From the NCBI RefSeq assembly GCF_014334335.1, contig NZ_JACSEU010000001.1, forward strand, positions 434,001 to 498,000: a stretch of DNA of 64,000 bases, written 5' to 3'. Origin of the DNA: Treponema sp. Marseille-Q3903 (GTDB lineage: Bacteria; Spirochaetota; Spirochaetia; Treponematales; Treponemataceae). Positions 14,900-43,726 of the stretch are shown here, piece after piece; within the stretch, counting starts at the first letter, position 1, and every line of letters begins with the position of its first letter. A program made the translations under genes and the position numbers. The notes beneath the pieces are model-generated. The model did no database searches. It was not told where the DNA came from and worked only from the letters and a program-made list of their open reading frames with translations.

Positions 14900-15197
14900 T
14901 AACACCCTAATTGTACCCACTTGCAAAGTTGTAACCCAGATGTTATATTTTGATGGCGAGATATTTTTAAAGAAAAGTTAATAAAGTGCCGAAAAATAAA
15001 AGATAATACTATTTAAAAAGTGTTTTCGTTAGCGGATATGAGAGTTTCTAGCAACGGAGGCATATATGAAAAATATTCCTTTAGTTCCGAATCTAAAACT
15101 TTTTTACGATTTCGGTATTTTTTTTACTTTTCTCAATTTGTTTTTATTTTCTTGTATAGCAGGATTTATCGCAATTGCAAGGATACAAGCTCCTTTA
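14900..15197 (+). repeat. Duplicated leader module, copy A
   Basis: A 298-nt segment repeated at 30571-30868 with constant offset (15671) and no internal gaps. It holds the promoter, the ~115-nt leader, the ribosome-binding site and most of a small hydrophobic ORF. The leader and ribosome-binding site are almost identical between copies. The left boundary coincides with the point where an rpoN fragment ends in copy B. Confidence 0.85.
14921..14949 (+). promoter_or_regulatory. Sigma-70 promoter of giant lipoprotein operon A
   Basis: TTGCAA, 17-nt spacer, TATATT, conserved in copy B. Predicted start near 14957, leaving a leader of about 110 nt before the small ORF. Confidence 0.65.
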
Positions 15198-15215
15198 TAT
15201 GATGATGAAAATTAA
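15066..15215 (+). CDS. Small hydrophobic protein, copy A
   Basis: 49 aa, with GGAGG five nucleotides before the ATG. The sequence has a polar N-terminus, one hydrophobic segment (GIFFTFLNLFLFSCIAGFIAI) that could be a membrane helix or a short lipoprotein signal with Cys after LFS, and a short acidic tail. Residues 1-44 correspond to the copy B protein at 30737; the C-termini differ completely. Its stop overlaps the start of the next gene. Conservation between duplicates and the strong ribosome-binding site argue it is translated; function unknown, possibly a leader peptide. Confidence 0.5.
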   Translation: MKNIPLVPNLKLFYDFGIFFTFLNLFLFSCIAGFIAIARIQAPLYDDEN

Positions 15216-16395
15216 AAAGCTTGCAATTTTTTTTGGACTTATAGCAGTTGTTCTCTGTCTTGTGTTTTGTCTTGTTGTTTGGAACAAAAAGACAAAGCTT
15301 TCCGTATTGTTTGTAGATATTCAAGAACCTGTCAAAAGCGCTTTTACAACGCAACTTTCACAAATTGCAAAGCGAAAACCGGTTTTTAATGCTTTTAAAG
15401 GCGACATTGCCTCATTGAAAAATGCTTCAAAAAAAGCAGACTTGATTTTTGCATACAATGGGCAGGCAGCAAGTGAAATTTCAGAGTTTGCGAAAGAGAT
15501 TCCGGGCTATATTTTACAAACCGTGCCTGAAAACTTTTTAAACGACAAAAAAAATGCATGCCCTATTTTGCTTGACCATTACGGCATTTTTTATTACGAA
15601 AAGGCAAGGCGTGACGCTCATATCCAATACGCAACGAGCTTTACGGAATTTCAGTCATACCTTGAGGATGTAAAACCTTATGTAGAAATTCCTCTTTTTG
15701 TGCCGGGTGGAAGCGATTCTAGACTTTTGGCTTTTGTTGGAGCTGTCACAGAAGGTGTTTTTGGAAGCGATGCTTATGTAAACTTTGTAAATGCGCTTAA
15801 AAATTACAAAGGCATTGATGATTTATTAAAAACTAAAATATCATCGGACAAAACCGTAAAAGATGCTTTTGATATAATATTAGACTTTGAGAGAAACGGA
15901 TATCTTCATTCGGCGTGGCTTGGGGTAATGCCACATGAATTTAAAAATTACACTTTGGATTCAAGATTTGCAATAGCTTTTGTTTCACTGTCGGATTATA
16001 GAATGCTTGATGCTGATTTGGGGCAGGAATTTTCTATGGACAGGATGCAAGTTCTTGATACAAAAGTAAAACACGGAATAATAGCTCCTGTAATTCAAGT
16101 TTTTTGTACATCAGAAAAAAAGATTGCTTTGGATGCTGTTGCTGCCCTTTCTGAAATAGAAGTTTTAAACGATATTTCGGATGCAACAAAGCTTGCATTA
16201 GCTTCGGCTTTTGCTCCAAGCTATGATAAACAGTCTGACGATGTGAGATTTCTTGCAGCGTCTTGCTATTCAGGTCCTATCTCTGACCCATTGATTGCCG
16301 CTTTTGAGCTTGATGAAAAAAGAGGTAAATCTTTTTGCACGGATTTAAGGACATACCTAAAAAAAATAAGTAAAAATACCTGTAGTTTTCCATAA
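15199..16395 (+). CDS. Exported or membrane-anchored protein of unknown function
   Basis: 398 aa from the first of three consecutive ATG codons (15199, 15202, 15205). An N-terminal hydrophobic segment (LAIFFGLIAVVLCLVFCLVV) is a signal anchor or signal peptide. The rest (SVLFVDIQEPVKSAFTTQL, KADLIFAYNGQAASEISEFA, SDPLIAAFELDEKRG) has the alternating pattern of periplasmic solute-binding proteins, but no family signature could be fixed. The gene overlaps the small ORF by 17 nt and precedes giant gene A by 64 nt. It has no counterpart before giant gene B, where the corresponding interval is 1179 nt shorter. Confidence 0.6.
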   Translation: MMMKIKKLAIFFGLIAVVLCLVFCLVVWNKKTKLSVLFVDIQEPVKSAFTTQLSQIAKRKPVFNAFKGDIASLKNASKKADLIFAYNGQAASEISEFAKEIPGYILQTVPENFLNDKKNACPILLDHYGIFYYEKARRDAHIQYATSFTEFQSYLEDVKPYVEIPLFVPGGSDSRLLAFVGAVTEGVFGSDAYVNFVNALKNYKGIDDLLKTKISSDKTVKDAFDIILDFERNGYLHSAWLGVMPHEFKNYTLDSRFAIAFVSLSDYRMLDADLGQEFSMDRMQVLDTKVKHGIIAPVIQVFCTSEKKIALDAVAALSEIEVLNDISDATKLALASAFAPSYDKQSDDVRFLAASCYSGPISDPLIAAFELDEKRGKSFCTDLRTYLKKISKNTCSFP

Positions 16396-16459
16396 TTTAT
16401 GTGAGGACTATCTTGTAAAGCTAAATGCATTGTATACGTTTTGATTTTGGAGGCATTTT

Positions 16460-19400
16460 ATGAAAAAGATTTCCAGTTATTTTGGGATTTTAGCTTTTTT
16501 AATACTTGCGTTGGTAACATTTTCATGTGAAATTGGACTTGGAGCTGCAATAGATATCGTTCCGCCAAAAGCGGAAATCTCCAGTCCAAAAGATAGCGCC
16601 ATAATAAGAGGAGATTTTTCACTATTTGGAACATGGGCGGACGATGGAGAACTTGGAAAAGTAGAAGTAGTTTTGCAATCAACGTCAAATTCTTCTTTAC
16701 ATTATAATTTTAAGGGAGAATTTACAGGCAACTTGCCGAACGAAGAAAAAACGTGGAAGTGTTTAATAAATCCTGTGTCTAGTACAAATCCTGTAAAAGA
16801 TGGCGAATATACAGCGACTATTTCTTTTTTTGACAAAGCAGGAAGAGAATCAAAAGTTACAAAGACTTTTACAATAGACAACACCCCTCCGGTTATAGTG
16901 TTGCAGCGGCCCGGAACAAAAAAGGGTCCTGCAAACGCGGATTCTTACGGACAGATATTTTCTCTTGAAGGACAGGGAGCGGACTCAAATAACATAGACC
17001 ATATCGATATTCGAATCTATGATGACAGTGCATGTCTAAACCATCTTAGAACAGTCACACTCAACAACGTTCCGTTGAATATAAAACTAGATGTTGCGAA
17101 ATTCGGCGAAGACGTTTACACCGCAATTTACGGCAGCACCGGAAAAAACGGTGAAAAGAAGTTGTACTGTGAGATTGATTCGTATGATGGCGCACAAAAA
17201 TATCCTACCGAGATAGGAAAAAAGCAGACGGCAGAAGACCTTATCGGAAACAAAACTTCAACATATTATCTGTACGATGACTTACAGAAGGATATCCTAT
17301 CAAAATACAACATTGCACGCCTTTATGAGATGATGAACGGCACGTACAGCCCTTCTGAAGACGGAAGTTCTTCAGGAGAGAGTGCCGAGCAAATTATTGG
17401 GAAGGTAAAAGAAGTTTTATCAGGCAAAGAAGCAAGAGTTGGAATGTTCTCTCTGAATCCAGAAAATAACCCGAGGTTCACTGTAAACGGTAAAGATCCG
17501 CTTCGTGCTGAAAGTTTAAATATAAGGGACGAATCTCAAGGATACTATATTACAAATGAAACTGATATAACTGTAGAAGTGTCGCCGGGACTTGACGGCA
17601 CTCAGCTTATAAATACGACAGAAAGTCCTTTGAAAGTGTATGCAATTGAATGCGACGTCCAAGGTCATGATTTACCGGGAGCAAAAAGAATTTATCCGCA
17701 TGTTGCAAGACCTTCTAAAAAAGCTGGTTCTACATATAAACTTTTTGTAAATCTTGCTCAGGCAACCTCTGCCTCTGAAGACGGCACAACGCATTTAGAG
17801 CTTAGAAAAATGTACAAGTTTGGCGTTGAAGGCAAGGATGCCAAAGGAAACGAAATAATACCTTCTGTAAGCACCGGCTACGGATTTTTCCTTGAATCTG
17901 CGGGGCTCGCTCCACAAGTAACTGTTATAAATAAAACAGACTATATAAAAGATGGGCAGAAAGTTGCGCTCGACGTAAAAATAGATGGAGAACCGCCATT
18001 TGCGATTGTAGTTCTTCAAGACAACGGAACTCCAAACTGGCAAGAGACTCCCGGAACAACTTCGTCAAGTAGCGGTACAGTATCTATAGAGGTAACCCCT
18101 ATTACTAGCCCTGCATCAAGACAGATAAAAGTTCGCGTAACTGATAATTCTGCAAGGGTTACTACAAAAAGTGTTAATTACAGTGTAGATAATTCTGCTC
18201 CTGATGCTCCTATAATTGAATCTCCTTCTACTGGTGCTACAGGAAATAACTCTCTTTCTGGTGCTATGTTCGTGTTTAGCGGCAAGGCAAACGATGCTGC
18301 GACTTCAATTGCAGGCGAAATCTCTTCTGGAATTAAAAAACTCTATTATGCGTTCATGACAAGCGATACATCTCCAACAGACTCGCAGTGGACTACTCAA
18401 TCTGCTTCAAACGGAACTTGGAACATAAATGCAACTTTGCAGACTGGAACTGGCACAAATACAAGCACAACTTTATACGAAGGAAAATATTGGCTTTATG
18501 TAAAGAGCGAAGACGGAGCCGGAAACCAATCTGCTGAAGTAAAACGAGAATTTTTTGTAGATCAGTCAGCTCCTTCGATTGCGGATATAAAACTCAAAAC
18601 TTCTGTGACTCCTCCTGATGTATTTGAACCTCTTGCAGAAGGCACTGTAAAATTTTTCAAAATTCCTTCTGGAAACTTCTCTATAACCGGAAAAGTAACA
18701 GATTCTAATGGGACCGATAGTGTTCTCGTCAACGGCAATGATGTTGGGACTATTGCTTCTGATGGAAGTTGGTCTTATCCTATACCGAGAGCTGAAAACA
18801 GTAAAATTGATTTCTCTATTGTTGCAAAAGATAAAGCCGGAAGGATGACCACACAAAATTATTCAATTTACTGCGATACAAAACCTCCAACGCTCTCTAT
18901 CGCAAATCCTGATGCAGATTTGACAGGTGAAACTTCTCTTGCTGTCGATAATTATACATTCAGCGGCTCTGTAAATGATTTAGGCTCGGGAGTTGATACA
19001 TTAAAATATATGATTTCGCAGGCTGACTTGACTGGCGACTCTGCAATAATAGCTTCCGCAGAGGCGGGAGCAGGCTGGGAAACTTCTTCAAGCTTATCTT
19101 CATTCAGTAAGACAAAAGAGTTCATTGCAGGAACAGCACCACAATCCGGTAAGATACACGAAGGAAAGTGGTATTTGTACCTTTATGCAAAAGACAAGCT
19201 CGGTAATTCTGCTGCTAAAAAGCGCATGTTCTGGGTAGATAAAAACTCACCGACATTTACGCTCGATAATATTCCTTCTGACACAAACCAAGCTGTAGTC
19301 GTAAAAGGAAATGCAAACGATGCGAACGGAATAGAAAATGTAAAAGTAAAGTTTAATCCAAAACCGGCTGGTTGGGCTTCTGATACGGAAACGCTTACTC

Positions 19401-22400
19401 CGACACAATATTCATCTGGAAAAACTTATACGCTTGGTAATTCTGGAAATAATTTACCAGACGGAAAATATACAATCTTGGTTACGGCAACAGACAAAGC
19501 AGGAAAAATCGCAAGCGATACAAAAGAGGTTTGTGTAGATACTGCCGCTCCGGACGGAACTGTTGCTGTTTCAGACACAGCAGATTACACAGAAAGTGAC
19601 AAAAACTGGTACAAAAAGAATTATATAAAGATAAAATTTACACCTTCATCAGATTCAGGTTCTGAAATTGAAGACGTAAAAGCAAAATTGCGTAGCTACG
19701 GCGATACGAACGCATCAGGAACGGAAGACCTTGTAAAAACGACGAGCAGTGGCGTAACATGGTGGGAAGCATCATTGCCTGCTCCGGAACAGGGCAGAAA
19801 TGAAATTTATCTTTTTATAAAGGATAAAGCAGGAAACACCGCTGAGAAAAAATCTCCTGCCACAGCGGATGTTTACATAGATACAGAATCCCCTGATGAC
19901 TGTACCGTATATAATTACGTTTCAGACAGCACAAACTATTCTTCGGAGACTCCGCTTATCGGTTCAAAAACGATTAACGGAAAGATTGCAAGAGAGTTTG
20001 TAATAAAAGCTCTTGATAAAAATAATTCTCAAAATGGAAAATTCTCGGGAATAGGAAAGATTTATTACAAATACAATAACACTCCTACTGATTACATTTA
20101 CGCTCAACAGTTGGGTACATCAGATTATTACAAAATCACTATTCCTGCAAACAACGGCACTACTTTTTATCAGAAGACAGGAACTGTAAAATTTTATATT
20201 GAAGATAAAGTTGGAAATCGTCTTGAGTTCTCTGCATTTAGTTTTGTAATTGATAGCACTCCTCCATCTGTACAGATAAATCCTGTAACAGATACTTTAA
20301 AGGCTTCTGATGGCGATACGACTTCAAACATAGATGTTAATGGAACTTTGAGTATTTCAGGAACTTCCAACGAAATTGCAACAGTCACTCTAAAATATTT
20401 TGCCGGCACGGCAGAACCTTCTGACTGGACAGCTTCAACAGTAAAGACTGCGCCTGTAAATGGAACTACAAGCTGGACTTCTTCTATAAACACGACGACC
20501 TTGGATGACACGAAAAATCTCTATATAAAGGCGTTTGCAAAAGACGAAGCCGGCAACGTCGGAGAATCCGGCACAATGACTCTTTATATAAACCAAGATT
20601 CGGATCGCCCGACAATAACGTTCTCAAATCTTGACCTTTCTGAATCTACAGTTTGGTTAAAGGGAATAAAGACAGTCTACGGTTCAGTATTAGATGATGA
20701 CGGTACAATCACCTCTATTGAATACAAAAACGGTGCAAGCGGAACATACAGCCTGATAACTATTAATAACGGTTCTTGGGAACAGGAAATGCAGGATGGA
20801 CAGAATGATATTTACTTCAAAATTGTAGACAAAACCGGCAAAATATTTGAAACCGGAACTACACTTCAACCTAAACTCAAGAGCGTAAAAGCCGGTGTTT
20901 CAATATTTAAGACAGGAGTTCTTACAATCAAGGTTGATACGACTTCTCCGAGCTACACAAACCTTGAATTTGCTTCAAAGAAAAACGACGGAACAACGTC
21001 TGCATTTGCAAGCGATATAAATTCGCTTGTTTTTGGAGGTAATTATTCAAAAATTCTTGCAAAACTTAAAGCTGATGATGCGAATGGAGTTGCTTCTGTA
21101 ACATTGAGGCTCGGAACTCAGACGCACAATGCGACAATTGAAGGTGCATCTCCAGCGGCTCAGAATGCAAATAAAAACGACTCTGCTCCGCACTCTTGGG
21201 ATTTTGGTGAAATAACAATTCCTAATACCCTTACAGGTCCTACGACTATGCGCCTTATCATCACTGATCAGGCAGGTACAACTCGAGAAGACAACATAAA
21301 CTTTGAAATTGACAATACAAAACCTGTTTTAAGTTTTACAAGCCATATCGACGGGGCAACTGTCTTTGCAACTGCTGACGTTATAGTTCGAGGAAGCGTA
21401 GATTCAAACGACCTTAAAGAATGGAAATATGTGCTTACTAATACAAATGTGCAGCCTACGGTAGGGGATCCAAAATACAAACCGCTTATAAACGGTTCAA
21501 CAAGTTTTACGCTTGTGTTCGACGGAGGTTCATCAACAACTTCAGAAACTCATGCAGAAAAACTGTTCAAGCAGATTTGTACTTTGGAAGGAATATCAGA
21601 AACTCAGTTGCAGGCGGACGACACAATCCGAGACCTATATCTTCACATTTACGGTGAAGATATAGCCGGAAACATCTCTGGCATAAAAACTCTTCATATA
21701 AAGGCAATTCCAAACGGAGATAAACCTACTGTTTCATTCTCTTATCCAGCAACAAATGGAGCTTCCCTTGGTGGAACAATCCGTATTACAGGTACTTCTG
21801 AAATACAACAGAGTGAAGTAGATGCTGTTTATATTCAAATTGATCCGAATCCAAATCTTACATGGGAAAAATCTGAAAACGGAACTTATTATTTAAATGG
21901 TCCTAATAATTATGTAAAATATACAGGCAGACGTTATAAACATGTAAGCGGTAATTACATAGAAGACCTGAACGGTGAATACGTTTTAATTAATTCTACT
22001 TACTCTCGTGCAGCTGATACTATCTATCGTGTAGCAACAGCAACATTTACAACAGGCTGGGGTGCACACCTTACAGCAGTCGCAGGCTCTCATTATCCAA
22101 GGGTAACTGTAAATTATACAGGTGGCAATGAGCAGGCGATAAAGACTGGCGGAAGTGTTTCAAGCTGGAACATTGCCCTGAACTCTTATAATGAACTCAA
22201 TGCTTCAAAAGCGGTAGCCATTAGAATTTTTGCAGTAAGCAAGGCTCACAAGAAGAGCGACTATCAGACAGTTTGGTTTAGAATGGACCCTGACGCTCCT
22301 CAAATCGGAAGCACGACTCCGCTTGAACTTGTTCAGTATAAGGACGATGACATAACAAAACCGATTGTTGCCCACAGAAGTTATGAATCTGATATGTGGA

Positions 22401-26670: not shown

Positions 26671-26714
26671 CCCGTAAATGTGTTTTGCAACAGGTTTTTC
26701 ACCCGTTGATATTT

Positions 26715-27770
26715 TTATTCACGTAACAGTTCGGTCAAGCCTGTGTTTATGAAAATATTATCCTTACCGGCTTTTATGCATTTTAAAATTCCTCTGTCTT
26801 CCAACGTGTGCAGATAACGGGAAGCTGCCTTTCTCTCAATTCCCAATTTTTTTACAATGAATTCGATTTTGCAGTACGGGTTTTCAAAAAGTGTTTCTAC
26901 GAGTTCTTTCGAATAGATTTTTGATGCGTCTGTTTTTATTTTTTCAGCCGTATTTTCTAGGAGATTTTTTATATCTTTTACTTTTTCAATCGTCTCTGAG
27001 GCTGTTTGTTCAATTCCTTTTAGAATAAAAATAATCCAGTTTTCCCAAGCGTCTTCCGTTCGGACTTTTTGCAGAAGTTTGTAATATTCATCTTTGTTTT
27101 TTATGATGTATGAACTTAAGTACAAAATCGGAACTTCAAGATGGTGTTTCAAAATCAAATACAAAATATTTATGATTCTTCCCGTCCTGCCGTTTCCGTC
27201 ATAAAAAGGATGGATGCTTTCAAATTGATAATGAAGAACCGCAAGTTTTGAGAGCGAGTCGTCGGCATTGTTCAAATAATCTGTAAAATTTTTTAACAGT
27301 TCGTCTATTTCTTGTTTTGTCTGTGGCGGAGTGTAGACGATTTCATTTGTGCGGTCGTTCACGAGTTTTGTTCCGGGTAAGGTTCTGATTCCTGCCTCAT
27401 TTTGAACAAGTATTTTTTGGATGTTTACAATATCGTTTATTGAGATAAAATCGTGTGCTTTTAGCTGATAAAACCCAGAGTATAATGCTTCGCGATAAAA
27501 CATTACCTCTTTTGTCGCCGAATCTATTTTTTTTGCAGTTTCAGAAACCGCTTTATAAAGCTCGTCTTTTGTAGTAATTATGTTTTCAATCCCCGAACTG
27601 TCTTTTGATTCCTGCAATACAATTGCGTTTATAAGAATCATCTGGTTCGGAATTATGTTTGCAATTCCTTTAAGCTCCGCAAGTGTTTTTGCCGCTTTTG
27701 TTTCTGCTTTAAGAATGTTGATTGTTTCAATCTTTTTAGAATCAATCGGTAATTTTGATAACTCAAACAT
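26715..27770 (-). CDS. fic: Fic-family AMP/UMP-transferase, self-inhibited class
   Basis: 351 aa from the ATG at 27770. The core motif HPFYDGNGRTGR (187-198) is intact, with catalytic His187 and the anion-binding DGNGR loop. The inhibitory motif S-S-G-I-E-N (58-63) matches [S/T]-x-x-x-E-[G/N] and lies N-terminal to the core, so this is a class II Fic whose Glu62 blocks ATP until relieved. A C-terminal winged-helix-like region (~285-351, VKKLGIERKAASRYLHTLEDRGIL) suggests DNA binding or autoregulation. The start is set by a promoter 6 nt upstream. No antitoxin gene is adjacent. It follows the methyltransferase gene by 48 nt. Confidence 0.92.
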   Translation of the reverse strand: MFELSKLPIDSKKIETINILKAETKAAKTLAELKGIANIIPNQMILINAIVLQESKDSSGIENIITTKDELYKAVSETAKKIDSATKEVMFYREALYSGFYQLKAHDFISINDIVNIQKILVQNEAGIRTLPGTKLVNDRTNEIVYTPPQTKQEIDELLKNFTDYLNNADDSLSKLAVLHYQFESIHPFYDGNGRTGRIINILYLILKHHLEVPILYLSSYIIKNKDEYYKLLQKVRTEDAWENWIIFILKGIEQTASETIEKVKDIKNLLENTAEKIKTDASKIYSKELVETLFENPYCKIEFIVKKLGIERKAASRYLHTLEDRGILKCIKAGKDNIFINTGLTELLRE

Positions 27771-30418: not shown

Positions 30419-30425
30419 ATTTTTA

Positions 30426-30431: not shown

Positions 30432-30466
30432 CCGGTAGAAGCTAAATTATGCTATAATTCCTATAG

Positions 30467-30868: not shown

Positions 30869-30955
30869 ATTAAAATTTTTCTCCCTGTTATTGTATTGCA
30901 AATATTTTTGTTTGCCGCCGGAGTAAATCTGTGTGATGAAAGAGGCATTTTATGA
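30737..30955 (+). CDS. Small hydrophobic protein, copy B
   Basis: 72 aa, preceded by the same GGAGG site as copy A. The first ~44 residues match the copy A peptide (MKNIPL..., FYDFGIFFTF, LFLFSCIA). It then continues with a second hydrophobic stretch (IKIFLPVIVLQIFLFAAGV) and a short charged tail. It overlaps the start of giant gene B by four nucleotides (ATGA), so the two are translationally coupled. Copy B may be the fuller ancestral form, copy A having been interrupted where the 398-aa gene lies. Function unknown; a membrane partner or leader peptide for the lipoprotein is possible. Confidence 0.55.
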   Translation: MKNIPLFQTLKLFYDFGIFFTFYNLFLFSCIARFVAAARIQTPLIKIFLPVIVLQIFLFAAGVNLCDERGIL

Positions 30956-33900: not shown

Positions 33901-36900
33901 TTTGTATTTACCGGCACGGCAAACGACGCTACGGCTTCAAATCCAAATGAAACAACTTCAGGAATTAAAAAACTTTATTATAAGTTTATGACGAGCGACA
34001 CAAGTCCGACAACATGGGATTCTCAAGTAGCTGTCAGTGGAACTTGGAACATAAATGCGATATTACAGAACGGGCATGGAACATCTTCCGGCACAACGTT
34101 GTATGAAGGAACTTATTGGCTTTATGTAAAGAGCGAAGACGGAGCTGGAAACGAATCTTCTGTCGTAAAGCGAGAATTTTCTGTAGACAAGGCAGCTCCT
34201 AGCGTTACAGAGGTAAAACTCAATGGAACACAAGTGCTTACAGAGGGGGTTGTAAAATACTTTAATAGCGCATTAGGGGATTTTACGATAAGCGGAAAAG
34301 TGACAGACACTAACGGGCTTCAAAGTTTTAAAGTAAATGGCGCTTCTGTAACACCGGCGCCTGACGGCACTTGGTCTTACGATATAACAAGAGCGGAAGA
34401 CAGTCAGATTGATTTTTCTATTGTTGCAACAGACAAAGCCGGAAGAACTACAACAAAAAATTATTCAATTTACTGCGATACAAAACCTCCAACGCTCTCT
34501 ATCACAAACCCTGATGCAGATTTGACCGGAGAAACTTCTCTTTCTGTGTCAAACTACACTTTCCGCGCTTCCGTGAACGATTCCGGCTCGGGAGTTGATT
34601 CATTCAAATATATGATTACTCAAGACGACATTTCAGACATAACAACTTCAGCAGAAGCCGGAACAGGCTGGACGATAGTTACAGGTTCTTCATTCATCGC
34701 TCAAAAAGAACTGATTGAAGGAACAACACCGCAACTCGGCAAACTCCACGAAGGAAAGTGGTATTTATATACATACGCAAAAGATAAAATCGGAACAGCT
34801 GCGACAGAAAAACGCACATTCTGGGTAGATAAAAAATCTCCAACTCTCTCACTCGACAACATCGCGTCTGTTACAAACCAAGCTGTAGTTGTAAAAGGAA
34901 GTGCAAGCGATGCAAACGGAATAAAGGATGTAAAAGTAAAATTTGATCCAAAACCGACCGGTTGGATTTCTGATACAAAAACTTTGACAGATGTGGAACT
35001 TGCGACAGGTGAAACATTCACTGTAGGCTCGGGAAATGATTTGTCAGACGGTTCATACTCAATCCAAATTACAGCAACCGACAAAGCTGGAAAAACCACA
35101 AGCAAAACAAGAACAGTTCTTGTAGACACAGCTAGCCCGGATGGAACTGTTTCTATGGATTCATCGGAAACAGCGACTGTTATAGGTTCGGAAAATTGGT
35201 ACAAAAAAGGCTCTCTAAAAGTGAGGTTTACGCAAACCCCAGATTCAGGCTCTGAGATTGAAGAGGTAAAAGCAAAGTTTATAGAAGATGGCGGAACTGA
35301 TTATTCAGGATTGCAAGATTTTACTAAGAAAACTCAAGCAGGAAATACTTGGTGGGAAGGAACATTAAACGCTGCTCGACAAGGAAAGAACTGTATTTAT
35401 CTAGTTGTAAAAGACAAGGCAGGCAATGAAAGAATAAAGAATACAAATGACAATATTGCTATCTATGTCGATACAGAATCACCTGATGACTGCACCGTAT
35501 ACAACTACGTTTTAGACAGCACAAACTATTCTACGGAAACTGCAATTACCGGTTCAAAAACAATCAACGGTAAGATTCCAAGAACATTTGTGATAAAAGC
35601 TGTTGACAACGATGACAATGGCAGCGGAACGTTCTCTGGAATTGGAAAAATCTACTATAAGTACGACAATGTAGACGCTCATAAAATTGATGCTGCCGTA
35701 TTGAACGCATCAGATAACACATATAAAATCACGATTCCGGCAAATACGATATCTGACATATATCAGAAGACAGGAACTGTAAAATTCTATCTTGAAGACA
35801 AAGTTGGAAACCGCATGGAATTTTCATCATTTAGTTTTGTGCTTGACACCACGCCTCCAGCTGTAGTTATAAATCCTGTAACAGACTCCTATAAGGCTTC
35901 TGATGGAGATGCGACTTTAAATATAGATGTCAATGGCGAGATAGTCATTTCCGGAACTTCTGACGAGATTGCGACAGTCACTCTAAAATATTTTGTCGGC
36001 ACGGCAGAACCAAACTGGGCGACAGACTCGGGAGTAAAGACAGCGCCTGTAAGCGGAACAACAATCTGGACTTCTTCTATAAGTACAATAACGGAAAACG
36101 ACACCAGCAATCTCTACGTAAAAGCGTTTGCAAAAGATGAAGCTGGTAACGAAGGAGAATCTCTCACAACAATTCTTTATATAAACCAAGATTCAGACCG
36201 CCCAATAATAACGTTCTCTAATCTCGACCTTTCTGCAACTACAGTTTGGCTCAAGGGAATCAAGACAGTCTACGGTTCAGTATTAGATGACGACGGCACA
36301 ATCAATTCGATAGAATACAAAAACGGCGCCGGCGGAACATACCATCCGATAACTATTGATAACAGTTCTTGGGAACAGGAGATGGCGGACGGTCAGAATG
36401 ATATCTACTTTAAGATAACAGATTCTAAAGGTACGGTTTTTGAAACAGGTACTACAAAGCAGCCAAAACTCAAAAGCGTAAAAACAGGTTCTACGACAAT
36501 TAAGGAAGGTGTTCTCACAATCAAAGTTGATACGACTCCTCCTAGATATACAAACCTTGAATTTGCTTCAAAAAAGAACGATATAACTATATCTGCATTC
36601 ACCGACGAAATAAATTCGCTTATTTTTGGCGGCGAGTATTCAAAGATTCTTGTAAAACTTAAAGCTTCCGACGAAAACGGAGTTGCTTCTGTAAAATTAA
36701 AACTTGGAAATCAAACTTATGATGCAACTATTGAGGGTACAAATCCTGCGGCGCAAGATGCAAACAAAAACAATTCCGATTCACACGCTTGGGAATTTGG
36801 CGAAATAACAATTCCTAACAATCTTACAGGTCCTACAGTTATGCGCCTTATCATAACCGACCAGGCTGGAACAAATCTCGAAGACAATATAAACTTTGGG

Positions 36901-39900
36901 ATAGACAATACAAAACCTGTACTAAGTTTTACAAGCCATAACGATGGTGCAATTGTTTTTGCGACTGCGAATGTTACAGTTCGCGGAGGCGTAGACTCAA
37001 ATGACCTTGAAGAATGGAAATATGCACTTACAAATACAAACGCGCAGCCTGCGGTTGGGGACGCAAGATACAAACCTCTTGTAAACGCATCTACAAGCTT
37101 TACTCTCGTGTTCGACGGTGCTTCTTCTACAACTACCGAAACCCATGCCCAAACGCTGTTCAATCAGATTTGTACTTTGGAAGGAATAAGCGAAACTCAG
37201 TTGCAGAATGATGACACAATCAGAGACCTGTATTTGCACATCTACGGTAAAGACAGGGCCGGAAATCAATCCGATATAAAGACACTTCATATAAAGGCAA
37301 TTCCAAATGGAGATAAACCGACTGTTTCATTCTCTTATCCAGCAACAAACGGAGCTTCCCTTGGTGGAACAATTCGTGTTACCGGTGCTTCCGAGATACA
37401 GCAGAGTGAAGTAGATGCAGTTTATATTCAGATTGATCCGGACCCGGCTCTTATGTGGGAAACATCTGAAAACGGAACTTATACTTATAATGGCACTAAT
37501 TACACAAAATATACAGGAAAACGTTATAAGAAAGTTGGCAGCAATTACGAAGAAGATTTGAACGGCGGATATATTCAAATAGGAACAAGTTTCTATCCCG
37601 CTGCTGACAATCTCTATCGTGTAAAAACTGCAGCGTTTACAAACAGCTGGGATACAAACTTCTCAACTGCCGGAGGTACCAACGCTCGTTATCCAAGAAC
37701 GAATGTAATTTATTCAGGCGGAAGTGAAACGGCAATAAAGACAGGTGGAAGTGTTTCCAGCTGGAACATTGCACTAAACGCTTACAATGAACTAAACCTT
37801 TCAAAAGCTGTTGCGCTCAGAATTTTTTCGGTGAGCAAGACAGGAAAGAAAAGCGACTATCAGACAGTTTGGTTTAGAATGGACCCTGACGCTCCTCAAA
37901 TCGGAAGCACGACTCCGCTTGAACTTGTTCAGTATGCAGGCGGTGCTTCTAGCGGAACTATTGTTGCACGCAGGAGCTATGAATCTGATATGTGGATAAA
38001 AGGACAATGGTATCTTAAAGGTTCTGTTACAGACGATAGCGGAATAAAGAGCATCAGACTAAAGATTGGAAATGAAAGCCCTTTTGATATTGTAACAATA
38101 ACTGACCCTTTAAACAATATTGGTACAATAACTACGCATCCTATTTATAAAAACTATGTCAAGTTAGGAGCAGCACACGGTTCGAACAACGATTACGAAC
38201 TGAATATCCCTGTAGGCTCTACTGAAAGTGATAAATTCGGAACTCTCACGTATGAAATATCTGCAACGGAAGGTGCTTCGCAGAGTCTTGGAACAAAGCA
38301 GACAATAAAGGTGAATTTTGACAACAAAGCGCCGGAATTTGCCGGAACAACATCGGAAGTTTTGAATAAAGCTTCTTGGGCAGAGAAACTTACAACAGAG
38401 TTGACCGGCAACGAGGTAATTCAAAATAGCGGCGGCAATTATAGATTCTACGGAATTGTCAACGAAGCGAGCGATGCGACAGGAAACCAGAGCGGATTCA
38501 ACAGAGTTGCAATGTACTTTACAAGGACAAGACCTGATGGAAATACATACGTAATCGACCCGATGCGCAAAGGTGGAACGACCGGTCTTGAAAACTTTAT
38601 GGAAACGGGTGCCGACTTTGAAGCCTATAAAACCGTAGCCGCCAATGGCGACGGACTTTACTGGCTCAAGAAGCGTAAGTTTACAGTAAGCGGAAATAAT
38701 ATTTTGACCGCTACCACTACAAATGCCTTGCATGAAAGTATTCGTAGGGGCGGACTTGTAAAGATAAATGGTGCGATGTATGTAATTAACACTGTTGACG
38801 CAGCAAACAGGCAGATTACTATAAAAGGCTCATTGTCTAACGGAAATGCCGATGCTTACTTTGCAGTGTGTCAAGTTATAGATAACTTTACGCAAGAAAA
38901 CGGCACAACAAAAGCTTATGATCCAGCACATTCTCTTGAGCCAAGTTCAAACGATGACGGCGACCAGATGATAGAAAGCGTTATAGAGAACGGAACAATA
39001 TCTACATTGAAAGCATTCATCGATTCAAAACTGATTTTGGACGGAGATGTAAAGATTCACTTTGTAGCATTTGATAAGGCAGGCAACGCTACAGAAAAAG
39101 AATATTCTGCAATTGTAAGGAACAATGCGCCGCGCCTCTTCGGGGTAAAATACGGAACAGACGTAAACGGAAACGGAACTATTGAAGACGGCGAATACGT
39201 AAAAACTTTCAACGATAAATATTCGGCTGTTGTCAGCGGTACAACTTATTACGGTTATAGCGGAAGCACGGATAATCCTATTTACTCTATCACTGCGACA
39301 GAAAGTCTTACAGTAAAAGCTACGCTAAAAGTTGTTCCACGCGTTGTCGGCGGAAACTTGGGACTTGGCTACACATACACGTACAAGCCGGATCCGGCTC
39401 TGCCTGCGACAACTACGACATCTTTCCAAGCGTATTCCGGTGCAGGACATTACAATTCCGATGATACTGCACTGCGCCCTGATACGCTTGGAATAGAAAT
39501 CGGACAAAAAGACTTTATCCAATACATACAAGACGGCGAGCAGGATATAACGTTTAAATTGTGGGACAAGACAGACGGAACTACAGCGGGAACTGACAGC
39601 AATGCTGCAACAATAGTTATTCCTGTAAAAGTTGCCGTTCGTGATGTGGAAGTACCGACAGCTGTTCTAAAACCGGTTAAATGGGTGAGTGCAAGCGATA
39701 ACAGCTTGTATGCAAACTCAAAAAAGAACGGACACATAGAACTTGAAGCGGATTTGCCATCATCGACATTTACATCCGGCGGAAGCGGAGTTTACGATAA
39801 AGACCCTAAAATTTCAGGAATCGTAACTTTCGAAGGAAGCGTAACCGACAACGTAATTGTAAATGAAATCTTGATAAAAATTCCAAACTATAACGGCGGA

Positions 39901-42072
39901 AATGCGTTTGCAATAGCGACAAGAGGCAGTGATGGAAAGATGAATTCTACAAACCTTTTGACTCTTAGCAGTGTAGCTCCTATAAAAACTTACGCCGACT
40001 ACAGCTTTGCAGGCACGGACTGGTATTTTGAGGTATTGACAGATAAGTTTGAGGATGACGGTTCAAATACCGTAAAATTCAAATTCCACTTTAATACTCA
40101 GAAGATAACAGACGTCGCAAAGACAGACGTAGAGATAGAGCTTTCTGCAAAAGACCGCGGCAAGGCGAGCGTTTCGGGGGGTGGCAATGTGATCTATACG
40201 CCTAACGCCTCAACTCCGGGAACAACGCAAACGACGGCTACTTCAAACACCGGTTACTACAAAGTTGACGTTGTGCCGTATATCACAGGGGTAAGCCGCA
40301 ACAGTATGTACAACACAAACAGAGCGAGAAGCGGTGCTACACCATTGCTCCGCGAAGAAAAAGGCAATACGATTACAGGTTTTAACTTTGCATCAGAAAT
40401 CGTATCCTCTTTAAAGATTTCTGAAAATAAAGACGGAAGCGGTTCTTCGGTTGCAATGGAGGATCTTACTTTAAGTGGTGATAAGAAGTGTTTTACCTTT
40501 ACAGTACCCAATACTTCAAAAGACGGATATCTGCATCTTGTGGTAAACGGCGTTACTGCGGTTAATAATATGAACGGCTATACCGAAAGCAATGTGGAAG
40601 AAGCCGATACATACGGAATCTCAAAACATTCCGACGACAGGCTTGTGCATATCTGGCGTGTAAATAAAGAAGATACGTTTAAGGGCAGTAAAAATGCTGT
40701 CTATCCGGCAATGAGGAAAGGTCCTAACGACATACTGTATGCTTCGTTCAGCAATTATTCAACGTCGAGAGTGTATTATTCAAATGAATTTACCGGAGAT
40801 CCTATCAATAGCCCTGAAATAGGAGGAACCGGTACGACGATATTGTTTACAGGTTACGATCCGCCGGAAGAAACCGATATAACCATAAACGGAAATGAAA
40901 TAAATGTACTTTATGCTGCAAATTATCATGGTGGAAATTCATGGCACTGGGGAAATGGTACAACCGTAAGTAGCAAAGATTACCCATGGAATGATACCGA
41001 TCCCGCAAATGCGGGAGGTATATACCTCTATGATAAAGATGGATACTCTGAAGGTAGGCATACTAAGCTGTATCGGTTCGAACTATATACTTACGATAAT
41101 GAATTGCAGCAGTTTAAAAACATACGGACGGTGCGTTCCGGCGATAACATCTACGTTGTCTATTATGACAGATTAACCGCAGCTGTAAAATTCGGCTGGG
41201 TAGATGACAGTACAAGACCGGATACAAGAGCGCATGCGCTTCCATGGTGCGTCATAGACGGCACTACCGACATAACAGATGAAGAGTGTAAAGTACCTGA
41301 CCACTTGGTCAATAGTCCGGGAGCTAATCCTCCTGATAATATATTTGAATTTGTAAGTCCCAACGGCACGTCGTATAAGACTCCGTATATACTGAACAAC
41401 CCGAATAACTTTGAAGACGGACTTTCAGTTTCAAATGGGGTGTGGGAATCTGTCGCAGTTACGGTAACTAAGGATGGCTATCCTGTTGTAGTGTATATGG
41501 ATGCCGCAACGGGAAGGTTACGCCTTGCAAGAAGTACGTCACAACAGCCTACGGCGCCAGCCGATTGGAAGATTCAAAGCGTTCTCGCTTCTTCGGATAA
41601 GAATGGTAAGCTTGCAAGCGACTACATAAATGCAGGTATCGGCAGCGATGGTTATTTGCATATCGCGTTCCAAAATACCAGAGGACAGCTCGTGTACGTA
41701 AAATCTACTAATACGTCCGATGACGGTTCAGCACAGTATACGTTTGGAAAATCGGAAGTACTTGATGATTCTGGTATGTTTATAGATATGACAATGGACG
41801 ACGCTACTCCTTATATTACGTATATGTCCCGTCCAAACTCATACGATGCTATCCGCATTGCCTATAAAGCGTCTATGGACTTTAACAATACGGGAACAGA
41901 TGTGCCTGGCTGGGAAACAATGACAGCTCCTCTTAATCAACGGGCGGCAAACGGACGTATCTGTGTTGCAACAAAGGCAAAGCATTTTGGAGCTACTCCG
42001 GATACTATGCCTATTGCCGTAGGATTTAATACAGGTTCGGATTACCGTGCAGCGTTTTTTGTAGGAAAATAG
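30952..42072 (+). CDS. Giant Ig-like repeat lipoprotein B
   Basis: 3706 aa, paralogue of giant A with the same signal peptide (VTFSC, Cys23), Ig-like modules, EF-hand-like loop (2737-2748) and IPT/TIG-like region (from ~3104). The first ~315 codons differ from A by only about 15-20 bases; the middle is clearly diverged. Residues ~484-865 are an extra block absent from A, net +369 aa, containing two or three additional modules (FYDVHEPAIDF, FCQNTDKPVAG). The tip (~3230-3706) is largely unlike that of A, though it keeps propeller-like repeats (GDNIYVVYYD, GYPVVVYMD, GYLHIAFQ). No frameshift is seen. Probably a cell-envelope adhesin or receptor (inference). Confidence 0.85.
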   Translation: MKKISSYFGILAFLILAIVTFSCEIGLGAAIDIVPPKAEISSPKDSAIIRGDFSLFGTWTDDGELGKVEVVLQSTSNSSLHYNFKGEFTGNLPNEEKTWKCLINPVSSTNPVKDGEYTATISFFDKAGRESKVTKTFTIDNTPPVIVLQRPGTKKGSANADSYGQIFSLEGQGADSNNIDHIDIRIYDDSACLNYLRTVTLNNVPLNIKLDVAKFGEDVYTAIYGSTGKNGEKKLYCEIDSYDGAQKYPTEIGKKQTAEDLIGNKTSTYYLYDDLQKDILSKYNIARLYEMMNGTYSPSEDGSSSGESAEQIIEKVKQVLSGRESRVGMFSLNPENSPRFTVNGKDALRAENLNMQDQSQGYYITEGTEISVEVSPGLDGTPLVNTTESPLKVYAIECNAQGTVLTGAKEIYLHVVKNFQKAGSTYKLFVKLDLGNSVSEDGTEHLQLGKTYRFGVKGKDDKGNGIIASASTGYGFLLESSGLAPELKVTAPVDSTVYVKKGDGVTITGETTTGAGLPLVEIFIGNSTTPAYSHQFTDLEGTPSGGNKKYTFNTVIPSNEFSQTDDKDYSIDIKSRIGGKASTITKTVFYDVHEPAIDFTNITPVITSYEFESDADKALASDNIKPDGTFKNPFINGKVHFKGIVQDTFTKIASVDWHVNQDNVTIPGLGGHGLRASFDVELDTTLTGVTITDNKELTVVFEATDSAGNKKTVNKKYFFCQNTDKPVAGPNNQNAWTAKAQQPKQIKEGSLVTPANPASRMNKLFAGSSIYAKVTDDDGIRKVEFKVEKLGYDTNYENSYVLSDQTSVPTEVKSETITDLGDTVETIVSHQMPSSSGYFKVAITVTDTNNISCVKSFVVQMTGAAPDVTVTNKSDFIKNGDKVKLEVKMTGEAPFTIVVLQDDGTPNWQQTNSETESGDTKEIEVTPIPSHVSQKIKVKVTDSSGGSTTKEVSYKVDNTGPTVPVIESPAAGSTGNNSLSGSSFVFTGTANDATASNPNETTSGIKKLYYKFMTSDTSPTTWDSQVAVSGTWNINAILQNGHGTSSGTTLYEGTYWLYVKSEDGAGNESSVVKREFSVDKAAPSVTEVKLNGTQVLTEGVVKYFNSALGDFTISGKVTDTNGLQSFKVNGASVTPAPDGTWSYDITRAEDSQIDFSIVATDKAGRTTTKNYSIYCDTKPPTLSITNPDADLTGETSLSVSNYTFRASVNDSGSGVDSFKYMITQDDISDITTSAEAGTGWTIVTGSSFIAQKELIEGTTPQLGKLHEGKWYLYTYAKDKIGTAATEKRTFWVDKKSPTLSLDNIASVTNQAVVVKGSASDANGIKDVKVKFDPKPTGWISDTKTLTDVELATGETFTVGSGNDLSDGSYSIQITATDKAGKTTSKTRTVLVDTASPDGTVSMDSSETATVIGSENWYKKGSLKVRFTQTPDSGSEIEEVKAKFIEDGGTDYSGLQDFTKKTQAGNTWWEGTLNAARQGKNCIYLVVKDKAGNERIKNTNDNIAIYVDTESPDDCTVYNYVLDSTNYSTETAITGSKTINGKIPRTFVIKAVDNDDNGSGTFSGIGKIYYKYDNVDAHKIDAAVLNASDNTYKITIPANTISDIYQKTGTVKFYLEDKVGNRMEFSSFSFVLDTTPPAVVINPVTDSYKASDGDATLNIDVNGEIVISGTSDEIATVTLKYFVGTAEPNWATDSGVKTAPVSGTTIWTSSISTITENDTSNLYVKAFAKDEAGNEGESLTTILYINQDSDRPIITFSNLDLSATTVWLKGIKTVYGSVLDDDGTINSIEYKNGAGGTYHPITIDNSSWEQEMADGQNDIYFKITDSKGTVFETGTTKQPKLKSVKTGSTTIKEGVLTIKVDTTPPRYTNLEFASKKNDITISAFTDEINSLIFGGEYSKILVKLKASDENGVASVKLKLGNQTYDATIEGTNPAAQDANKNNSDSHAWEFGEITIPNNLTGPTVMRLIITDQAGTNLEDNINFGIDNTKPVLSFTSHNDGAIVFATANVTVRGGVDSNDLEEWKYALTNTNAQPAVGDARYKPLVNASTSFTLVFDGASSTTTETHAQTLFNQICTLEGISETQLQNDDTIRDLYLHIYGKDRAGNQSDIKTLHIKAIPNGDKPTVSFSYPATNGASLGGTIRVTGASEIQQSEVDAVYIQIDPDPALMWETSENGTYTYNGTNYTKYTGKRYKKVGSNYEEDLNGGYIQIGTSFYPAADNLYRVKTAAFTNSWDTNFSTAGGTNARYPRTNVIYSGGSETAIKTGGSVSSWNIALNAYNELNLSKAVALRIFSVSKTGKKSDYQTVWFRMDPDAPQIGSTTPLELVQYAGGASSGTIVARRSYESDMWIKGQWYLKGSVTDDSGIKSIRLKIGNESPFDIVTITDPLNNIGTITTHPIYKNYVKLGAAHGSNNDYELNIPVGSTESDKFGTLTYEISATEGASQSLGTKQTIKVNFDNKAPEFAGTTSEVLNKASWAEKLTTELTGNEVIQNSGGNYRFYGIVNEASDATGNQSGFNRVAMYFTRTRPDGNTYVIDPMRKGGTTGLENFMETGADFEAYKTVAANGDGLYWLKKRKFTVSGNNILTATTTNALHESIRRGGLVKINGAMYVINTVDAANRQITIKGSLSNGNADAYFAVCQVIDNFTQENGTTKAYDPAHSLEPSSNDDGDQMIESVIENGTISTLKAFIDSKLILDGDVKIHFVAFDKAGNATEKEYSAIVRNNAPRLFGVKYGTDVNGNGTIEDGEYVKTFNDKYSAVVSGTTYYGYSGSTDNPIYSITATESLTVKATLKVVPRVVGGNLGLGYTYTYKPDPALPATTTTSFQAYSGAGHYNSDDTALRPDTLGIEIGQKDFIQYIQDGEQDITFKLWDKTDGTTAGTDSNAATIVIPVKVAVRDVEVPTAVLKPVKWVSASDNSLYANSKKNGHIELEADLPSSTFTSGGSGVYDKDPKISGIVTFEGSVTDNVIVNEILIKIPNYNGGNAFAIATRGSDGKMNSTNLLTLSSVAPIKTYADYSFAGTDWYFEVLTDKFEDDGSNTVKFKFHFNTQKITDVAKTDVEIELSAKDRGKASVSGGGNVIYTPNASTPGTTQTTATSNTGYYKVDVVPYITGVSRNSMYNTNRARSGATPLLREEKGNTITGFNFASEIVSSLKISENKDGSGSSVAMEDLTLSGDKKCFTFTVPNTSKDGYLHLVVNGVTAVNNMNGYTESNVEEADTYGISKHSDDRLVHIWRVNKEDTFKGSKNAVYPAMRKGPNDILYASFSNYSTSRVYYSNEFTGDPINSPEIGGTGTTILFTGYDPPEETDITINGNEINVLYAANYHGGNSWHWGNGTTVSSKDYPWNDTDPANAGGIYLYDKDGYSEGRHTKLYRFELYTYDNELQQFKNIRTVRSGDNIYVVYYDRLTAAVKFGWVDDSTRPDTRAHALPWCVIDGTTDITDEECKVPDHLVNSPGANPPDNIFEFVSPNGTSYKTPYILNNPNNFEDGLSVSNGVWESVAVTVTKDGYPVVVYMDAATGRLRLARSTSQQPTAPADWKIQSVLASSDKNGKLASDYINAGIGSDGYLHIAFQNTRGQLVYVKSTNTSDDGSAQYTFGKSEVLDDSGMFIDMTMDDATPYITYMSRPNSYDAIRIAYKASMDFNNTGTDVPGWETMTAPLNQRAANGRICVATKAKHFGATPDTMPIAVGFNTGSDYRAAFFVGK

Positions 42073-42125
42073 AAACGTGTAATTTTTATAAAATGCTCTT
42101 CAAGCATAAAGTTTTTTTGCTGATA

Positions 42126-42205
42126 GAGCATTTTATGCCGAGCAACTTGTCGAAGTTATTTTGTGCGGAGCGGGTAGACTCTGCTCAGTCAATTATGTTC
42201 TTTGG
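42126..42205 (-). pseudogene. 80-bp fragment of the adenine methyltransferase gene
   Basis: Matches 28096-28175 inside the methyltransferase gene without gaps, at about 80% identity. The left junction falls at GAGCATTTT, a sequence also present after giant gene A (26522). The right junction falls at TGTTCTTTGG, shared with the DUF1015 fragment that follows. Confidence 0.85.
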
Positions 42206-42301
42206 CAGGAGGATTTTAGGCACACGGAGCCATAATTCTTCAATCTTTTTCATATTTTTAAATATATTTGCAGAAATGAAATTATGTTATAATTCCTATA
42301 G
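42196..42301 (-). pseudogene. Fragment of DUF1015 gene 5' end plus divergent promoter region
   Basis: 106 bp colinear with 30361-30466: the first ~20 codons of the DUF1015 gene and the 48-bp DUF1015/rpoN intergenic promoter. It begins at the 10-bp microhomology TGTT(C/T)TTTGG with the methyltransferase fragment. It retains the rpoN promoter. Confidence 0.88.
42288..42293 (+). promoter_or_regulatory. -10 box of rpoN
   Basis: TATAAT ending 8 nt before the rpoN ATG, with no ribosome-binding site; the same box is preserved in the decayed copy at 30453-30458. Leaderless transcript inferred. Confidence 0.5.
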
Positions 42302-43726
42302 ATGAAAACATCTAATTCGCAGCGTCAAGTTTCTAAGCAGATACAAGGACAGTTTCAGAAGCTTTCTTTCTCTCAAATTCAAGCTCTCAGTTTTTTGTCT
42401 ATGACAAATACCGAGCTGACCGACGCAATTCATAAAGCTGTAAGCGAAAATCCCGCTTTGGAAATTGTCCGAGAACCGACAGGAAACTCTTATTCAGATT
42501 ATGTGCGTAGTTCCGGCAGCTTGGATTCCGACAAAAATCAGGCAGCGATTGAAAACCATGAAAGCCACAGAGAATCTCTTCAAGCTCATCTTATGCACCA
42601 GTTGAACATCATGAACGTTTCTGAGGCAGAATACAACCTTTGTCACCGCTTAATCTACAATCTAGATAAAAACGGATTTTACGGTTCAATGCTTGACCCG
42701 GAAACTTTTTTATCAAAAAAAGATGATGCTGGAAAAAAACTCCTTGAGCGTTGCTTAGATATTGTTCACTCTATGGATCCCGTCGGTGTTTGTTGCAAAA
42801 CGCCGGAAGAAAGCCTTTTTGTTCAGGCAAAACTGAGTGAAAATGCTCCGGAAATTGCACTTTTCCTTTTGAACGGGCATCTAGACATGGTAAATCCGCC
42901 TGAACCTCAAAAAATCTTAAAAAAGCTGATAGAATACCGCACCAATTGGCACAAAAAAGCGTTTGCGGCAGAAATCTTGCTCGATAAAGTTGAACTAGAT
43001 GAAGAAAAAGTTTCTCAAGCTCTTAAATTTATCCTTTCTTTAGACCCTCATCCGGCACACGGCTACAGCGTCGACTCGTTTACAGATCCTGCAATTCCAG
43101 ATATCGTCTTGAAAATTGAGAAAGTCGACGGATATCTCCCTTCAGATGATTATAGCAGCGGTCTTGTAAGTTGCGACCGAGAATGCCATTTTCAAGTAAA
43201 ATATGCCAGTGGAAATTTACCAGAAATAAGGCTTGCTAAAGATTTTAAAGTTGATAAAGAAAATTACAATAAAGCACAGCTTTTTATGTACAATTTAGGC
43301 TATCGCGAAAGCACGAACGTTTTGCAGGGGTGTATTCTTGTCCACGAACAAAAAGATTTTTTCAAGAACGGTCCAGGACATCTAAAGCCTCTGACACGTC
43401 AAAAAGTTGCGCAAAAACTTGGAGTTCACCAGTCTACTGTTTCGAGGATGTCTTCTAAAAACAGCAGCAAATATATTTCAACACAGTGGGGATTGTTTCC
43501 TGTCAGTTATTTTTATCTATCAGGAGTTGAGTCGGCATCAGGCGAAAAAGTTTCATCGGAAGTGATTAAAACTCGCATAAATCAAATTCTTCAAGAAAAT
43601 AAAAATTCGGTTATCTCCGATTCTAAGATGGCAGGACTGTTAAATGCAGAAGGCATAAAAATATCCCGCAGGACAGTGGCAAAATACAGAATCCAAGCGG
43701 GAATAAAAAACAGCTATTTTAGATAA
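42302..43726 (+). CDS. rpoN: RNA polymerase sigma-54 factor
   Basis: 474 aa. Region I, Gln-rich and activator-responsive, is at the N-terminus (IQGQFQKLSFSQIQALSFLSM). The core-binding domain follows (~95-300; MDPVGVCCKTPEESLFVQ). The C-terminal DNA-binding domain has an HTH (VAQKLGVHQSTVSRM) and the RpoN box SRRTVAKYRI (455-464; consensus A-R-R-T-V-A-K-Y-R-E). It recognises -24/-12 promoters and needs an AAA+ activator, none of which is in the window. It starts right after the duplicated promoter region and converges with the HPF-like gene, 6 nt apart. Confidence 0.95.
   Translation: MKTSNSQRQVSKQIQGQFQKLSFSQIQALSFLSMTNTELTDAIHKAVSENPALEIVREPTGNSYSDYVRSSGSLDSDKNQAAIENHESHRESLQAHLMHQLNIMNVSEAEYNLCHRLIYNLDKNGFYGSMLDPETFLSKKDDAGKKLLERCLDIVHSMDPVGVCCKTPEESLFVQAKLSENAPEIALFLLNGHLDMVNPPEPQKILKKLIEYRTNWHKKAFAAEILLDKVELDEEKVSQALKFILSLDPHPAHGYSVDSFTDPAIPDIVLKIEKVDGYLPSDDYSSGLVSCDRECHFQVKYASGNLPEIRLAKDFKVDKENYNKAQLFMYNLGYRESTNVLQGCILVHEQKDFFKNGPGHLKPLTRQKVAQKLGVHQSTVSRMSSKNSSKYISTQWGLFPVSYFYLSGVESASGEKVSSEVIKTRINQILQENKNSVISDSKMAGLLNAEGIKISRRTVAKYRIQAGIKNSYFR

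What the first reader, a model, noticed from the sequence alone, without database searches (positions are those of the whole stretch)
14900..42405. ~15.7-kb tandem duplication ending inside rpoN, then sculpted by microhomology deletions
The leader at 14900-15197 recurs at 30571-30868. Immediately before the second copy lies a decayed rpoN 5' fragment (30467-30575). Immediately before the intact rpoN lie an 80-bp methyltransferase fragment (42126-42205, from 28096-28175) fused to a DUF1015 fragment (42196-42301, from 30361-30466). The simplest history: the order giantA-fic-MTase-DUF1015-rpoN was duplicated in tandem from ~14900 to rpoN codon ~35; the first unit kept the side genes and a dead rpoN', the second kept rpoN. 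Two deletions then removed fic', most of MTase' and most of DUF1015', at GAGCATTTT and TGTT(C/T)TTTGG.
Basis: partly seen in the sequence, partly recalled or inferred. Interest (0 to 1): 0.85.

Follow-up and report, generated by a model that had tools for sequence, protein, structure and literature searches.

The report
Scarred tandem duplication beside sigma-54 gene
In a bacterium of the Treponema group, a stretch of chromosome appears to have been doubled and then to have lost different genes from each copy, which left a giant gene between two normally adjacent genes and small dead gene pieces as scars; the two giant genes seem older than this event and have exchanged parts.

Summary
The divergent pair DUF1015|rpoN is adjacent in 21 of 35 congeners. 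Here it is split by giant gene B: DUF1015 survives on the left, rpoN on the right, and each side keeps a dead 5' piece of the partner. All homologous blocks are collinear. This supports a ~15.7-kb tandem duplication ending in rpoN, then loss of different genes from each unit.

That both giant genes are copies made by that one event is not supported as it stands. Their first 321 codons are nearly identical (dS 0.05), their bodies differ at dS 0.84, almost as much as from a congener's giant (1.0), and the dead scraps differ by 14%. Bodies as old as the duplication would predict at least 36% in the scraps. So A and B were already different alleles or paralogues, or one body was replaced later; their 5' ends were then homogenised. 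Their C-terminal regions are of two types. That fic belonged to the duplicated unit is unproven; GAGCATTTT is not the breakpoint.

Best class: tandem duplication with reciprocal loss, a candidate late-stage "SNAP" event. Selection is not shown.

The parts
13637..14866 (+). Na+:dicarboxylate symporter (SDF), left border of unit 1
   Evidence: Pfam SDF E 7e-35
14900..15197 (+). Leader, copy A, with a small ORF truncated at codon 44 that runs on to the 406-aa gene
   Evidence: 92% to 30571-30868
15199..16395 (+). ORF406, giant-associated gene, weakly like sugar-binding ABC proteins; present in unit 1 only
   Evidence: 68% to the gene before G069's giant; homologues beside some giants in congeners; PDB profile hit E 0.0014
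16460..26473 (+). Giant A, 3337 aa, Ig-like (Big_13) protein
16450..17425 (+). Tract nearly identical to 30942-31917 (1.7% mismatches, then 24%): inferred gene conversion
   Evidence: change-point LLR 94; dS 0.052 for codons 1-321
26715..27818 (-). Fic protein (SoFic-like), unit 1 only
   Evidence: Pfam; NCBIfam SoFic 403 bits, below its cut-off of 550; patchy in genus
27819..29012 (-). Intact DNA methyltransferase (N6_N4_Mtase)
   Evidence: Pfam E 5e-33
29042..30418 (-). Intact DUF1015 gene, the only full copy found in the genome
30419..30466 (.). DUF1015/rpoN intergenic region with AGTATAC-17-TGCTATAAT
   Evidence: both boxes at spacing 17 in 11 of 13 congeners checked
30467..30575 (+). Dead rpoN 5' fragment, right end of unit 1
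   Evidence: 15 of 109 mismatches to live rpoN; two TAG
30571..30868 (+). Leader, copy B; joint rpoN'|leader at its left end; a promoter-like match at 30592-30620
   Evidence: match 9 of 12 (19 sites found in that region, 11.4 expected, so not evidence of function)
30737..30955 (+). 72-codon leader ORF whose stop overlaps the giant B start codon; last 28 codons absent from copy A
30952..42072 (+). Giant B, 3706 aa
32400..33537 (+). Part of giant B without a DNA match in giant A; matched in G069's giant, which suggests that A lost it
42078..42205 (-). Methyltransferase fragment, second unit
   Evidence: 20 mismatches in 126 aligned bases
42196..42253 (-). DUF1015 5' fragment, second unit
   Evidence: 4 of 58 mismatches to 30361-30418
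42254..42301 (.). Second copy of the intergenic region; DUF1015-side box lost, rpoN-side TGTTATAAT kept
42302..43726 (+). Intact rpoN (sigma-54), the only full copy found
   Evidence: Pfam

Best explanation
A segment from about 14900 (just after SDF) to codon ~37 of rpoN was duplicated in tandem by end joining with little homology. Each unit then lost genes that the other kept. Unit 1 kept the methyltransferase and DUF1015 and holds a dead rpoN start. Unit 2 kept rpoN with the short stretch that probably carries its promoter, and holds dead scraps of the methyltransferase and DUF1015. Once the single copies of DUF1015 and rpoN lay in different units, the array could no longer collapse by recombination without losing one of them. 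The outcome is a new gene order with a second giant gene between DUF1015 and rpoN. The two giant genes were not identical when the array formed, or one was replaced afterwards: A and B bodies are diverged alleles or paralogues, as would result if the duplication joined two different versions of the locus (a merodiploid) or arose in an existing giant array. Later, recombination between them homogenised the first ~975 bp. Shown: collinear repeats, reciprocal dead pieces, three divergence classes, the usual DUF1015|rpoN order in relatives. Inferred: the joining mechanism, the locking step, selection for two giants, and the source of the second body. The first three rivals below are competing sub-histories of the giants within this frame or close to it.
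For: Collinear direct repeats and one rpoN'|leader joint. One intact DUF1015 and one intact rpoN, each with one dead piece in the other unit. DUF1015|rpoN divergent and within 300 bp in 21 of 35 congeners and 3 of 23 genomes of other genera. AGTATAC-17-TGCTA(T/C)AAT in 11 of 13 congeners checked, whole in unit 1 (live DUF1015), DUF1015-side box lost in unit 2. Scraps pooled 48 of 341; giant body dS 0.84 [0.76-0.95]; N-terminus dS 0.052 [0.025-0.084]. P(48 or fewer | 36.5%) = 2e-20. Tails: A like G069 (82%) and G014 (42%), B like G015 (38%), A against B 22-23% (28% over a longer stretch).
Against: No relative with the unduplicated order was found (0 of 23 mapped loci). 14 of 35 congeners do not show the adjacent divergent pair, though 7 of these are uninformative (5 on different contigs, 2 lacking a gene), so the pair can also be parted in other ways; in the gapped loci G008, G026 and G019 I saw no such scars. 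No fic trace in unit 2. The scraps are short, and conversion by the live genes could make them look younger than they are. The 73 bp unique to copy B has no convincing source in the sequences held. The nearest relatives are far (rpoN at most 59% in the listed matches), so the order of events rests on divergence, not on intermediates.
Confidence: 0.7

Rival explanations
1. One reading: one giant gene duplicated once with its neighbours; one copy's body and tail were later replaced by imported DNA, and ORF406 was deleted from copy B.
For: Fits the repeat borders. ORF406-giant is also found collinear in G069, so copy B would have lost ORF406. Giants seem to recombine between lineages: A and G069 tails dS 0.56 against bodies 1.03.
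Against: Needs replacement of most of one giant while its first 975 bp stayed, and leaves B's own 73 bp unexplained.
Confidence: 0.25
2. A and B were already tandem giants, each with a leader (tandem giants occur in congeners). The duplication covered leader-B to rpoN', and the first B copy was then lost.
For: Tandem giants in G003, G001, G009 and G060. Explains old bodies, different tails and B's own leader end.
Against: One extra deletion, for which I saw no trace between giant A and fic.
Confidence: 0.3
3. Giant B arrived by integration of donor DNA: a single crossover with a joined donor piece carrying leader-B and MTase-DUF1015-rpoN', which also yields flanking repeats.
For: Same topology as a tandem duplication of two alleles. 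Explains body divergence above scrap divergence.
Against: Needs a circular or joined intermediate not seen here. No transposase among the 8 proteins scanned and no inverted repeats at the borders at E 1e-3.
Confidence: 0.2
4. Assembly artefact.
For: Repeats near large genes can be misjoined; no reads are at hand.
Against: Copies differ by 2-24% with dead reading frames, in a 2.2-Mb contig of a 4-contig assembly.
Confidence: 0.03

Closest known systems
SNAP model (Brandis and Hughes 2020, PMC7055797; abstract and sections 7 and 10 read)
   Same: Segmental duplication, loss of different genes from the two copies, rearranged gene order, dead copies with matching live genes.
   Different: SNAP invokes selection, and duplications of tens of kilobases or more between repeats. 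Here selection is not shown, the unit is 15.7 kb, the joint shares only a few bases, and the two giants are not recent copies of each other.
Operon-cluster rearrangements explained by duplication and asymmetrical loss (PMC8046335; passages read)
   Same: Same proposed route to new gene order.
   Different: In the passages seen, the mechanism is proposed as a possibility; here dead pieces remain at both ends.
Tandem duplication-random loss of mitochondrial genomes (search listing with abstract starts only)
   Same: Same geometry: doubled segment, complementary loss, leftovers.
   Different: Bacterial chromosome; one gene family is kept in both units and is mosaic.
Merodiploids from natural transformation (PMC3784515; abstract read)
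   Same: Tandem duplications holding two versions of a gene.
   Different: Those are ~100-900 kb and use repeated sequence.
Giant bacterial Ig-like adhesins, e.g. Mobiluncus mulieris, SiiE, BAP (search listing with abstract starts only)
   Same: Very long surface proteins; Ig-like domains named in the listed abstracts of the Mobiluncus protein and BAP.
   Different: Separate C-terminal region of two types; no secretion or adhesion data here.

Membership tests
Tandem duplication with reciprocal loss | Direct, collinear repeats of the doubled segment with one novel joint | tested here: met
Tandem duplication with reciprocal loss | Each unit keeps genes that are dead or missing in the other | tested here: met
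   DUF1015 live in unit 1, rpoN live in unit 2
Tandem duplication with reciprocal loss | Unrearranged order in relatives | tested here: inconclusive
   DUF1015|rpoN in 21 of 35 congeners, MTase neighbour in 9 of 23 mapped loci but in the other orientation, giant-fic part in 0 of 23
Simple tandem duplication of one giant gene | Duplicated parts show one age | tested here: not met
   dS 0.05, 14% and dS 0.84 classes
SNAP event | Duplication kept by positive selection on a gene in it | not testable with these tools
   retention of two giants is only suggestive
Transposon or IS insertion | Transposase or terminal inverted repeats with short target duplication | tested here: not met
   no transposase in the 8 proteins scanned; no inverted repeats at the borders at E 1e-3, flank repeat 219 bp
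Giant bacterial Ig-like protein | Ig-like domain above Pfam cut-off | tested here: met
   Big_13 60.4 and 50.4 bits against 27

The most novel reading that the evidence does not exclude
This is a nearly finished natural SNAP event caught with its scars: a duplication that joined two different versions of a giant surface-protein locus, locked in place by reciprocal loss of DUF1015 and rpoN, with the shared divergent promoter decaying on the side of the lost gene and the giants still exchanging their 5' ends.
Probability: 0.35. Interest if true: 0.65.

Novelty: new member of a known kind. Interest (0 to 1): 0.5.

Why it matters
The SNAP authors wrote that there was so far no direct empirical evidence that rearrangements in modern bacteria arose this way, and suggested looking for pseudogenes with matching active copies (PMC7055797, section 10). 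This locus has that signature around a widely conserved gene pair, so sister strains could test it step by step. It also shows how dating the scraps against the retained genes separates a duplication from older or later exchange in the genes that it carries.

Tried and rejected
Rejected: IS or transposon insertion. Assembly duplication (copies too diverged). Constraint as the cause of N-terminal identity (A against G069 dS 1.5 there). Copy B's 73-bp spacer as a relic of ORF406 (no match inside it; the best foreign match of that stretch is 28 bases, E 7e-4). The leader ORF as a piece of SDF: weak local similarity; 12 and 11 of 300 shuffles reach it for the A and B peptides against the window's SDF; scores to four relatives' SDF were 54-62, without shuffles; left open. 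Scars in other congeners: in the fetched loci of G008, G026 and G019 the best extra rpoN or DUF1015 match was E 0.066, and none for rpoN in G006's contig piece. The genome-contig scan with rpoN found no relative; with giant N-termini it gave 76 loci, 57 of them (L146-L202) from records titled Treponema or another spirochaete name. Structure predictions of the two tails were unfinished at the last polls, so no fold is claimed. Paper searches: open PMC text only; I make no claim about print beyond them.
Full report
The window is bases 434001-498000 of a 2.2-Mb contig in a 2.51-Mb, four-contig genome. Named relatives of its giant genes are Treponema records, many from rumen or gut samples, among them T. 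bryantii. I infer that G015 is T. bryantii XBD1002, because its contig length of 114,545 equals that of NZ_FORI01000010.1.

Observation. All blocks are direct and in the same order. First unit: leader, ORF406, giant A, fic, methyltransferase, DUF1015, dead rpoN start. Second unit: leader, giant B, methyltransferase scrap, DUF1015 scrap, live rpoN. The joint dead rpoN|leader at about 30570 shares only a few bases with its two sources. The methyltransferase/DUF1015 joint is at TGTT(C/T)TTTGG as stated. GAGCATTTT occurs at 26522, 28096 and 42126, but the methyltransferase match continues to its left (0 of 2000 shuffles), so it is not the joint.

Relatives. I searched 59 genomes (the own, 35 congeners, 23 of other genera) for rpoN and DUF1015. 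In congeners the pair is divergent and within 300 bp in 21 of 35; 5 have the genes on different contigs, 5 are divergent with a longer gap, 1 is adjacent on one strand, 1 is otherwise placed, 2 lack a match to one gene or both. In other genera it is adjacent and divergent in 3 of 23; 17 have different contigs, 1 a longer gap, 2 another placement. In 9 of 23 mapped congener loci the methyltransferase lies next to DUF1015, always convergent with it (G004, G006, G010, G014, G024, G025, G121, G146, G216), while in the window both lie on one strand. A fic gene of 80-82% identity occurs in 10 of the other 199 genus genomes. In the 9 of these 10 that I mapped, no other window gene was recognised in the fetched stretch. 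fic may therefore have entered unit 1 after the duplication.

The scar in the promoter. In 11 of 13 congeners checked, the intergenic region holds AGTATAC, 17 bases, TGCTA(T/C)AAT; the other two match on the rpoN side only. Unit 1, beside live DUF1015, keeps both boxes although its rpoN is dead. Unit 2, beside live rpoN, has lost the DUF1015-side box. That these are promoter boxes is inference; the consensus scan did not list the rpoN-side box.

The giant genes. Both carry Big_13 Ig-like domains. N-termini of the family match in 44 of 59 genomes at E 0.001 and in 84 of 200 genus genomes at E 1e-30, the own genome included. The closest outside giant is in G069 (74% over the N-terminus, next best 47%), although G069's rpoN is only 37-40% identical, which suggests transfer between lineages. 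G069 has ORF406 directly before its giant, collinear with copy A. ORF406 homologues also stand before a giant on the same strand in G026 and G034 and, by coordinates, G008 and G019. Others do not: for example G024 has one beside SDF, and G003's lies on a contig without a giant match. I take ORF406-giant as an old unit that copy B lacks.

Three ages. In the ungapped stretch 16450-17907, A and B differ by 1.7% up to base 17425 and by 24% after it. Codons 1-321: dS 0.052 [0.025-0.084]. Body: dS 0.84 [0.76-0.95], against 1.03 (A) and 1.01 (B) to G069. Scraps: rpoN' 15/109, intergenic 9/48, DUF1015' 4/58, methyltransferase' 20/126, together 48/341. Leader: 9/166 outside and 14/132 inside its ORF, between the N-terminus and scrap classes. 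If the duplication were as old as the bodies, at least 36% would be expected in the scraps; P of 48 or fewer is 2e-20. If as young as the N-termini, about 3%; P of 48 or more is 4e-18. This assumes a neutral dead copy and a live copy that changes at a quarter of sites. Conversion of scraps by the live genes would bias them young.

Mosaic ends. The tail of A is 82% identical to G069's and 42% to G014's; the tail of B is 38% identical to G015's and 22-23% to A's. A lacks an internal stretch that B and G069 have. A and G069 tails (dS 0.56) are closer than their bodies (1.03), so tails too seem to have been exchanged. The tandem giant starts that lie together in L082 (G003) and L119 (G060) show no comparable DNA match to each other (one of 35 bases in L082, none in L119).

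Reading. The duplication with reciprocal loss is well supported by the arrangement and the scars. The giants' history is partly separate: either two alleles or paralogues were brought together, or one body was replaced. I cannot order these with the relatives at hand. As for function, the giants look like surface lipoproteins (a spirochaetal lipobox-like start is my reading, from memory, not a test), and ORF406 weakly resembles sugar-binding ABC proteins (E 0.0014-0.011). A role in binding glycans in the gut is a guess. Whether selection for two giants held the duplication is untested.

Noticed in passing
30419-30466 and 42254-42301: AGTATAC-17-TGCTA(T/C)AAT between divergent DUF1015 and rpoN in 11 of 13 congeners checked: a candidate shared promoter with fixed geometry.
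   Followed up: partly
30737-30955: 72-codon small hydrophobic ORF whose stop overlaps the giant B start codon; outside the own genome only weak hits in 200 genus genomes (best E 5e-4).
   Followed up: partly
15199-16395: Gene family without a Pfam or NCBIfam match here, found in 32 of 59 genomes searched, the own included, and next to giant genes in several of them.
   Followed up: partly
26564-26673; L116 13249-13379 and 15142-15274: A similar intergenic element follows the giant in the window and in G069, where it is repeated; only one copy in the own genome at the search threshold.
   Followed up: partly
27819-29012: Methyltransferase is codirectional with DUF1015 here but convergent in the 9 mapped relatives where it is adjacent, so it was inverted or moved.
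   Followed up: no
L061 4143-19073 (G006): In another congener a giant gene with an ORF406 homologue lies next to rpoN while DUF1015 is on a different contig; a 99-bp direct repeat (91%) stands just upstream of that rpoN.
   Followed up: partly
3131-3166: 36-bp imperfect palindrome.
   Followed up: no
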